From positions 1 through 33,889 of the forward strand of contig JAGAOE010000063.1 in assembly GCA_017623885.1 (NCBI GenBank): 33,889 bases of DNA, in the 5' to 3' direction. A program made the position numbers and the translations under genes. This DNA comes from Eubacterium sp. (GTDB taxonomy: Bacteria; Bacillota; Clostridia; Lachnospirales; Lachnospiraceae). Numbering within the stretch: the stretch's first letter is position 1; the number at the start of each line of letters is the position of its first letter. The notes beneath the pieces were generated by a model. It was not told where the DNA came from. It worked only from the letters and a program-made list of their open reading frames with translations, and did no database searches. Shown here in pieces: positions 24,734 through 26,791 of the stretch.

Positions 24734-26791
24734 TTACTGTTCTGCATTTTTCGTGATTTTTAGACCACTCGTAGAGAACTTACCTGTATAAAGCATATTC
24801 TTGTTTTCATCATAAAACTCAATCGTCAGCGTTTCTAACTCATTCTGAATCACGGATAAATATTTAAACGGTGACTGAACACTGATATGCTCATTGGAGT
24901 ACAAATAGCTTCCGACTGCATCACTTCGAATCAAATAATAGGCGATTCCTTCCTCATTATTTGGCAAGATTTTTATCTCAAGCATACCGGTCGTATCATT
25001 GACTTCCACCTCATAGGAACCAATCGCATAGTCTTGTGCATGCGTCACCTGATAGCCAACAGTGATTTCCAGCTCGCCACTCGTAGACCGAGGATCTATT
25101 TCACACTCGTCCACAAACTCACCTTCGTTGTACAATCGTATGGTGACCTTTTCAATACTCTTTAACGCCAATGCCAGATGTCGAATCACCTGATCTACTT
25201 CTGTCCGGTCTCCGAGTTGTATCTCATCACACCACAACTCATAATGTGTAATTTCCCCTTCCAGATCTTCCGCCAATGAAATATTCAGACAAAACTCTTC
25301 ATTTTGAATAATCTGTGTAATGTAATAGTACGATCCTTTCTTCTCGTCTTCGGTCAGAACACTGTCACCCATCTCTGCCGCCACCGGATTCAACCCACCT
25401 TCTGTAAGTAATAGACTTATCGCACCACAGGTCAGTCTGTCAAATTCATACATAGAAGCGGAATAAGTCTGCATCGTATCCATCATATCATTTTGAAGTG
25501 TTTCAAAATTTTCTAATGACGACTCATATTCATCGTAGGTCATTGTGCCCAGACGATTTAACAATCGCTCTTTCTCCAATTGTTTTTTTGCATCTTCTAC
25601 TTGTGATACAATTTCTGCATATGCATTTTTTATAGAAACATAATTCTCAAACGAATCCTCTACCTGAGACGTAATGTCTGCTTCAACTGCCAGTCTTTCC
25701 AATCTGGCATCCTGATACGCCAGCGCACAATCATAAAACGCATACGGTTCATCCTCTACATAGCGCGAGCCATCCGTATCTCCCTTAAACCAAAGTTTGG
25801 GAATTCTGATAAACAAAATTCGATAAGAACCGTTCCACTGCTCATCAATCTTGTCTAAAAAGGTTTTATAGTTTGCTTTAAATTCACGTGAATTAATTTT
25901 TTCACCATTTAAAGCCATCTTATAGTATTTTGAAATCAGACTCATCGAGTTATTGCCAAATTTCTTTGACATCGCCTCATAGTTCGTCATCATTTCCAAT
26001 TTCGCTGTCACCTCAGTCATACATGCTTCATAATATGTCTGATCATTGTCCAGCGTATATTGTAGCAAATTCGGTAAATCTGTCGTTCGTTTCAAATCGG
26101 CTTCTACAAACGGATTTTCAAACCGATAATCCGTCCGTACCTGTTCATTCGCAGTCAATTCTGCCAGTTTCTTTTTCCGATTTGTCAAATTTCTCTTATG
26201 TGATAGCAGCTTGGATGCATGTGATTTGCGTTTTGCAACCATCGCATCAATATCTTCCTGCTTTGCCAGCCCCTGTAGCAATCGAATCTGATTTTTCGAA
26301 ATCGCTTTGTCCAATACATCAATCTGTTCTTCTAGCAACGCAATCTTTTTTTCCAGCATTACAATATCCAGATACACCGTATTGACCTGTTCATAAATTT
26401 CGAATTTCACATCCGTCAACTGATGTTGAACGGTATCAATCTCCGCCTGTATTGATAGCGGTTTGAAGTCGAATTCAACGATTTCTGACAAATTCGGATC
26501 TGTCGGGAATTTGAATGAAAGCAACGGTGACCAGCGAAAAGTTTTCATGCTCTTTTCTCGCATCGCCAAAGACTTCTCAGCCTGCGCTTTTTTTATTTTC
26601 TGCATCTCAAGCTTATTTTCCAATCGTTCGACTTTTGAGCTGTTTTTTAATGCAAGTGCACGTGCCTGTTCCATCGTAAGCACCGGCTTTGCCTGCGCAC
26701 CTTCTGATTGCTGCACAGACGTCAATGTAATACCTAACACAAGCGAAAACATGATTAAGCATGCCAAAACTTGTCTGATCCTGCGTTTCAT
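24734..26791 (-). CDS. Exported TolC-like protein with extra C-terminal beta domain
   Basis: The 685-aa protein has a signal peptide (residues 1-32, CLIMFSLVLGITLTSV core), then the TolC-family opening LTMEQARALALKNSSKVERL and long heptad-rich helices (LEKKIALLEEQIDVLDKAIS). A second, similar helical half begins near LPNLLQYTLDNDQTYYEACM. TolC proteins form trimeric helical tunnels joined to an outer-membrane barrel. From about residue 480 the protein adds a domain absent from normal TolC, rich in strands (HYELWCDEIQLGDRTEVDQV; VGYQVTHAQDYAIGSYEVEV). No adaptor (HlyD-like) or transporter gene is nearby. It starts 3 nt after the MORN gene and ends at the next gene. A helical envelope conduit or spacer for the CIS is an inference. 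Confidence 0.7.
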   Translation of the reverse strand: MKRRIRQVLACLIMFSLVLGITLTSVQQSEGAQAKPVLTMEQARALALKNSSKVERLENKLEMQKIKKAQAEKSLAMREKSMKTFRWSPLLSFKFPTDPNLSEIVEFDFKPLSIQAEIDTVQHQLTDVKFEIYEQVNTVYLDIVMLEKKIALLEEQIDVLDKAISKNQIRLLQGLAKQEDIDAMVAKRKSHASKLLSHKRNLTNRKKKLAELTANEQVRTDYRFENPFVEADLKRTTDLPNLLQYTLDNDQTYYEACMTEVTAKLEMMTNYEAMSKKFGNNSMSLISKYYKMALNGEKINSREFKANYKTFLDKIDEQWNGSYRILFIRIPKLWFKGDTDGSRYVEDEPYAFYDCALAYQDARLERLAVEADITSQVEDSFENYVSIKNAYAEIVSQVEDAKKQLEKERLLNRLGTMTYDEYESSLENFETLQNDMMDTMQTYSASMYEFDRLTCGAISLLLTEGGLNPVAAEMGDSVLTEDEKKGSYYYITQIIQNEEFCLNISLAEDLEGEITHYELWCDEIQLGDRTEVDQVIRHLALALKSIEKVTIRLYNEGEFVDECEIDPRSTSGELEITVGYQVTHAQDYAIGSYEVEVNDTTGMLEIKILPNNEEGIAYYLIRSDAVGSYLYSNEHISVQSPFKYLSVIQNELETLTIEFYDENKNMLYTGKFSTSGLKITKNAEQ

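What the first reader, a model, noticed from the sequence alone, without database searches (positions are those of the whole stretch)
24734..26791. TolC-like protein with an added beta domain in a CIS operon
Seen: signal peptide, TolC opening motif, two helical halves and an extra C-terminal beta region; no adaptor or transporter partner nearby. Known: TolC family proteins span the outer membrane and periplasm. Inferred: in a monoderm it could line a helical passage through the wall for the CIS tube, or it hints that the host is diderm.
Basis: partly seen in the sequence, partly recalled or inferred. Interest (0 to 1): 0.7.

Follow-up and report, generated by a model that had tools for sequence, protein, structure and literature searches.

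The report
Wall-zone TolC-like barrel in bacterial injector
Gut bacteria with a single membrane (Lachnospiraceae) carry, inside the operon for a phage-tail-like injection machine, a secreted relative of the TolC channel that appears to have lost its outer-membrane barrel, which suggests that the machine is held at the cell envelope by a dedicated wall-spanning complex.

Summary
The gene (24734-26791, minus strand, 685 aa) encodes a secreted protein with a TolC fold: all 29 top PDB entries are TolC-family, best Z 21.5 over 345 residues. Two Ig-like beta domains follow at the C-terminus. Its close family sits only in contractile injection system (CIS) loci. In 80 named genome loci, 64 of 64 with enough upstream sequence have the CIS13 gene and 60 of 60 with enough downstream have the neighbour g879. 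Class-wide, 5 of 5 strong homologues are in CIS-bearing genomes (14 of 391). The host is monoderm: no Omp85 in 61 relatives, no LpxC in 21. The regions that form TolC's outer-membrane barrel are shortened, yet are the most conserved segments. Plain TolC relatives are common in monoderm Clostridia outside CIS, some fused to wall-associated domains. The protein co-evolves most tightly with g879, an exported helical protein with a PF07833-like domain. Best reading: part of a trans-wall complex that anchors this CIS, not a sleeve for the tube, because a TolC trimer (about 70 A wide) is narrower than a CIS tube (about 80 A). The diderm alternative is rejected. Mechanism is inferred; novelty: new variant of known kinds.

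The parts
24734..26791 (-). TolC/OEP-superfamily secreted protein, 685 aa: signal peptide, duplicated alpha-barrel halves, two C-terminal beta domains
26693..26791 (-). signal peptide (aa 1-33), no lipobox
   Evidence: hydrophobic 4-28; AxA-type site in 78/78 orthologues
26492..26539 (-). stub 1 (aa 85-100, FRWSPLLSFKFP...), sits where TolC has its first beta hairpin; most conserved segment of the family
26246..26284 (-). hairpin tip 1 (aa 170-182, GLAKQEDID), aligned to the TolC/OprM periplasmic tip
   Evidence: alignment to OprM; G174 and D180 conserved
25739..25834 (-). stub 2 (aa 320-351, FIRIPKLWFKG..DG.RYVEDEPY), where TolC has its second beta hairpin
25526..25564 (-). hairpin tip 2 (aa 410-422)
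24746..25336 (-). two Ig-like beta-sandwich domains (aa 486-682)
22095..24734 (-). g879: exported or signal-anchored, mostly helical protein; ATG overlaps the TolC-like stop codon (TAATG)
   Evidence: strongest co-evolution with the TolC-like protein
22173..22433 (-). copper-amine-oxidase N1-like domain (PF07833) of g879, aa 768-854
   Evidence: E 1.3e-4, 22.3 bits against cut-off 24.2; Z 9.6, 1.9 A over 74 residues
26795..28027 (-). MORN-repeat protein with one transmembrane helix (within aa 62-95)
28072..30528 (-). TM818: multi-pass membrane protein, four predicted segments, large C-terminal region; not found in the compact variant
30532..31377 (-). TM281: soluble domain plus C-terminal transmembrane helix; very weak protein-kinase resemblance
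   Evidence: co-evolves with CIS13
31391..33196 (-). CIS13-family protein (601 aa)
   Evidence: NF053767, E 7.8e-25, below curated cut-off
21484..22074 (-). Pvc16/Cis16 (tail terminator)
   Evidence: E 1.3e-29
20328..20720 (-). PAAR-like DUF4280
   Evidence: E 3.4e-32
18586..20283 (-). contractile sheath
2785..13515 (-). baseplate, spike and CIS_tube-domain genes (two CIS_tube, VgrG-like, gp25, J-like, Tail_P2_I)

Best explanation
The protein is an exported alpha-barrel subunit derived from the outer-membrane-factor (TolC/OEP) superfamily that appears to have lost the membrane-spanning beta-barrel. It works outside the cytoplasmic membrane, in the cell-wall zone, as part of an envelope complex encoded in front of the CIS structural genes (CIS13 - TM281 - TM818 - MORN/TM - TolC-like - g879). 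Proposed mechanism: TM281 and CIS13 tie the baseplate to the cytoplasmic membrane; the TolC-like barrel, held by g879 whose PF07833-like domain may contact wall polymer, forms the rigid, about 100 A long, wall-spanning element. This gives a T6SS-like anchored injector in a monoderm. Shown: homology, predicted fold, export signal, exclusive CIS linkage of this clade, monoderm host, conserved stubs, co-evolution pairs. Inferred: wall location, oligomer, contact with g879 and with the baseplate, and a role in anchoring or positioning rather than as a channel for the tube.
For: TolC fold and OEP profile in 10/11 members. H3/H7 and H4/H8 are 72/63 and 36/35 residues, against 67 and 36 in TolC (PMC8277102). 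Synteny in CIS loci: 64/64 CIS13, 76/76 MORN, 60/60 g879, 50/53 sheath. Class-wide, 5/5 strong homologues lie in genomes with CIS_tube, which only 14/391 have. No Omp85 or LpxC. Tight coupling: TAATG overlap with g879. Partial correlation of distance matrices: TolC-g879 0.74, TM281-CIS13 0.63, all other pairs 0.37 or less. In one clade both TolC-like and g879 are enlarged. Monoderm OEP proteins fused to SLH (L121), to PF07833 (L143, L147) or to HlyD (L139), and an OEP protein found in the surface proteome of the Gram-positive Desulfotomaculum reducens (PMC4137172), support a wall or surface location for such proteins.
Against: No localisation, interaction or microscopy data. Stubs are modelled with low confidence (pLDDT about 50), so the missing barrel rests on linker length, helix boundaries and the absence of an outer membrane. 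Distance-matrix correlations carry no valid p-value. Two well-studied CIS outside Gram-negatives work without such a complex (Streptomyces with CisA, PMC12237407; haloarchaea, PMC11566945). 9 of 14 CIS-bearing genomes in the class sample have no strong homologue, so it belongs to one CIS lineage only. PF07833 as a wall binder is an association, not a proven function.
Confidence: 0.5

Rival explanations
1. Export conduit: the TolC-like barrel is a wall-crossing pore through which a CIS-associated secreted factor or small molecule leaves, as plain OEP proteins next to MFP/RND genes in other Clostridia may do; it is operonic with the CIS for regulation, not for anchoring.
For: Both hairpin tips that dock adaptors in OMFs are retained; plain monoderm OEP proteins lie next to or fused with HlyD/RND genes.
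Against: No MFP, RND or ABC gene in the locus; exclusive CIS linkage and the conserved neighbour set fit a structural role better.
Confidence: 0.2
2. Surface sensor or trigger: the barrel and its beta domains form an antenna that detects contact and signals inward through MORN/TM, TM818 and TM281 to fire the CIS.
For: Ig-like domains at the C-terminus, the second being the most variable part of the mature protein (mean conservation 0.44); multi-pass TM818 in the operon.
Against: The compact variant (L096, shown) shows no TM818 match yet keeps the TolC-like gene; the family's most conserved parts are the barrel-end stubs, not the outer domains.
Confidence: 0.15
3. Tube sleeve: a large ring lines the passage of the CIS tube through the wall.
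For: Wall-zone location is plausible; alpha-barrel geometry.
Against: OMF trimers are about 70 A wide outside (PMC8277102) against a sheath inner diameter of 8-10 nm (PMC10996793); my estimate is that about eight or more protomers would be needed, unknown in this superfamily.
Confidence: 0.05
4. Diderm host: the protein is an ordinary outer-membrane factor and the host has an outer membrane.
For: OEP homology only.
Against: Omp85 in 0/61 and LpxC in 0/21 genomes including the own one, with positive controls ringing; Lachnospiraceae hosts; shortened barrel region.
Confidence: 0.01

Closest known systems
TolC / outer membrane factor (OEP, PF02321) superfamily
   Same: Fold, internal duplication, helix lengths of H3/H7 and H4/H8, hairpin tip motifs, signal peptide
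   Different: No outer membrane in the host; barrel-forming segments cut to 16 and 31 residues; about 40 extra helical residues before stub 2; two C-terminal Ig-like domains; no adaptor or pump in the locus
Plain OEP proteins of monoderm Clostridia
   Same: OEP homologues in hosts without Omp85
   Different: Mostly 360-540 aa, found outside CIS loci, sometimes fused to SLH, PF07833 or HlyD domains; lack the CIS neighbours
Trans-envelope complex of T6SS (TssJLM)
   Same: Proposed analogous role: tying a contractile machine to the envelope
   Different: No TssJ/L/M-like family found in the window proteins scanned; monoderm wall instead of outer membrane; analogy, not homology
Haloarchaeal T6SS-like CIS with membrane protein Hbor_38620 (PMC11566945)
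   Same: CIS in a single-membrane cell, with a candidate membrane anchor
   Different: That system appears to have no complex outside the cytoplasmic membrane
Streptomyces CIS with CisA (PMC12237407)
   Same: Monoderm host and an accessory membrane protein
   Different: Particles free in the cytoplasm; the paper does not mention TolC
Thylakoid-anchored CIS (PMC8894136)
   Same: Membrane-anchored CIS built on eCIS genes
   Different: Anchored by tail-fibre and baseplate extensions to thylakoids

Membership tests
TolC/OEP superfamily (homology) | match to PF02321 | tested here: met
   10/11 family members at E <= 0.05, best E 9.5e-12; distant CIS member L114 above cut-off; window protein alone 14.3 bits, below the cut-off of 22
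TolC/OEP superfamily (homology) | TolC fold with duplicated half | tested here: met
   Z 21.5, 345 residues aligned; all 29 leading entries TolC-family
Outer membrane factor in the strict sense | 12-stranded beta-barrel that spans an outer membrane | tested here: inconclusive
   Linkers of 16 and 31 residues, no strand longer than 4 residues in the model, pLDDT about 50 there; leans to absent
Outer membrane factor in the strict sense | host with an outer membrane | tested here: not met
   Omp85 0/61, LpxC 0/21
Outer membrane factor in the strict sense | periplasmic adaptor and pump partner in the locus | tested here: not met
   no MFP/RND/ABC family in scanned window proteins; OMF partners may be encoded elsewhere
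Outer membrane factor in the strict sense | homotrimer | not testable with these tools
   only single chains can be predicted here
Contractile injection system (locus) | sheath, tube, gp25, J-like, VgrG-like, PAAR and Cis16 genes together | tested here: met
T6SS (canonical) | TssJLM membrane complex | tested here: not met
   no such family in the window proteins scanned; rest of the genome not searched
T6SS-like mode of action | machine anchored in the cell envelope | not testable with these tools
   needs cryo-electron tomography

The most novel reading that the evidence does not exclude
Monoderm Lachnospiraceae carry an envelope-anchored, T6SS-like CIS whose wall-spanning complex was built from a TolC homologue that gave up its outer-membrane barrel.
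Probability: 0.4. Interest if true: 0.8.

Novelty: new variant of a known kind. Interest (0 to 1): 0.6.

Why it matters
I found no account of how a contractile machine could be held to, and fire through, a thick Gram-positive wall. This locus offers a concrete, conserved set of envelope genes in common gut and rumen bacteria, with cultured carriers (Extibacter muris DSM 28560, Dorea sp. D27, Butyrivibrio strains), so the question can be tested. It also bears on what TolC relatives do in bacteria that have no outer membrane.

Tried and rejected
Fusion of TolC-like and g879: suggested by long open-frame figures, rejected on reading the DNA (separate ORFs). Homology of the coiled-coil extension of long TolC-like proteins with g879: only E 0.005-0.008, not claimed. 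g879 as an MFP adaptor: no such family or fold turned up; it has a helical hairpin and a PF07833-like domain. TM818 and TM281 families: Pfam and PDB profile searches gave nothing firm. Mobile origin: no match in plasmids, phages or viral contigs. Promoter and terminator scans were at chance level. Literature: searches of the open library found no report of a TolC-like CIS component and no study devoted to a Lachnospiraceae or Butyrivibrio CIS; subscription papers and preprints are not covered.

Full report
WHAT IS THERE. The gene lies on the minus strand at 24734-26791 and encodes 685 residues. Its neighbours in transcription order are CIS13 (31391-33196), TM281, TM818, a MORN-repeat protein with one transmembrane helix, the TolC-like gene, g879, then Pvc16, g247, PAAR-like DUF4280, sheath, tube and baseplate genes. 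The stop codon of the TolC-like gene overlaps the start of g879 (TAATG), and a purine-rich stretch precedes its own start, three bases after the MORN stop.

IS IT TOLC. The window protein matches the OEP profile only weakly but in both halves, at the same profile positions. Ten of eleven aligned relatives match, the best at E 9.5e-12, and a distant CIS-linked member passes Pfam's cut-off (L114). The predicted structure matches the TolC family first and by a wide margin: Foldseek E 1e-7 and Z 21.5 over 345 residues, with the next unrelated rows at Z 7.5. H3/H7 are 72 and 63 residues and H4/H8 are 36 and 35; TolC has 67 and 36 (PMC8277102). So an alpha-barrel about 100 A long is likely. The segments that make the membrane barrel in TolC are short (16 and 31 residues) and poorly modelled. 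They are nonetheless the most conserved stretches of the family: 3rd of 635 and 8th of 619 windows. Two Ig-like domains follow.

THE HOST. Named homologues are Lachnospiraceae, Butyrivibrio, Dorea and Extibacter. Omp85 is absent in 61 of 61 genomes and LpxC in 21 of 21, while positive controls ring. The diderm alternative falls.

LINKAGE. In 98 order-level relatives, 11 have a homologue; 9 of these 11 also have a CIS_tube hit, and the other two have sheath genes beside the TolC-like gene. In 80 named loci, every one with enough flank has MORN (76/76), CIS13 (64/64) and g879 (60/60); sheath is found in 50/53, and in the remaining three an enlarged TolC-like and g879 gene pair pushes sheath out of view. 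Class-wide, all five strong homologues lie in CIS_tube-bearing genomes, which are 14 of 391; CIS synteny was also read directly in G429, G183 and G317. Nine CIS-bearing genomes lack a strong homologue, so this is a feature of one CIS lineage. By contrast, OEP matches occur in 46 of 98 relatives (a count that includes some CIS-linked ones); most are proteins of 360-540 aa outside CIS. Some are fused to SLH, to PF07833 or to HlyD domains. An OEP protein was found in the surface proteome of the Gram-positive Desulfotomaculum reducens, together with PF07833 proteins (PMC4137172). A TolC relative in a monoderm is therefore not rare; the CIS-bound form with its neighbours is what stands out.

PARTNERS. 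g879 is modelled well (pLDDT 87.6): N-terminal hydrophobic segment, long helical body, and a C-terminal domain like domain 1 of copper amine oxidase (Z 9.6, 1.9 A; PF07833 just below cut-off). Distance-matrix correlation between TolC-like and g879 is 0.96, partial correlation 0.74; the other strong pair is TM281-CIS13 at 0.63. This suggests one outer pair and one inner pair. These numbers come from non-independent pairs and have no p-value. In one clade both the TolC-like protein (up to 1322 aa) and g879 (up to 1322 aa) are enlarged. The compact variant (L096) keeps CIS13, TM281, MORN, TolC-like and g879 but shows no TM818 match in the fetched stretch.

MECHANISM. I favour a trans-wall envelope complex that anchors the CIS, with the TolC-like barrel as the wall-spanning element. 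Tube passage through a TolC-type trimer is unlikely on size: about 70 A outside width for the OMF (PMC8277102) against an 8-10 nm sheath inner diameter (PMC10996793). Rivals are an export conduit and a contact sensor. Location, oligomer and contacts are not shown by any data here.

NOVELTY. Searches of the open paper library gave no TolC-like CIS component and no study devoted to Lachnospiraceae CIS. That is limited coverage. I call it a new variant of known kinds: a TolC-superfamily protein and a CIS, combined in a monoderm.

Noticed in passing
window 564-2339: MATE-family transporter with a weak HATPase_c_2 match at its C-terminus, kept at the end of the CIS locus in same-genus relatives (L019, L023, L027).
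   Followed up: no
L102, L104, L105, L106, L109: Long TolC-like proteins (1042-1322 aa) with a C-terminal coiled-coil extension; g879 is also enlarged where its full ORF was seen.
   Followed up: partly
L121, L143, L147, L139: Monoderm OEP proteins fused to SLH, PF07833 or HlyD domains outside CIS.
   Followed up: partly
window 30532-31377: TM281 profile has a very weak match to a protein kinase (E 0.0027), and it co-evolves with CIS13; a pseudokinase-like anchor is possible.
   Followed up: partly
window 15619-17319: Tube-adaptor-like N-terminus followed by a long repetitive tail (KRGRSSAMKETQGQRRY-type repeats) that varies between relatives.
   Followed up: no
L016, L017 (G095) and L125, L126 (G429): Distant CIS loci with partly rearranged order: MORN and TM818 homologues, the TolC-like gene and g879 are present, but order, strand or size of the neighbours differ.
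   Followed up: partly
G025, G031: Same-family genomes with a CIS_tube gene of another type (219 aa frame, stronger Pfam match) and no homologue of this TolC-like protein.
   Followed up: no
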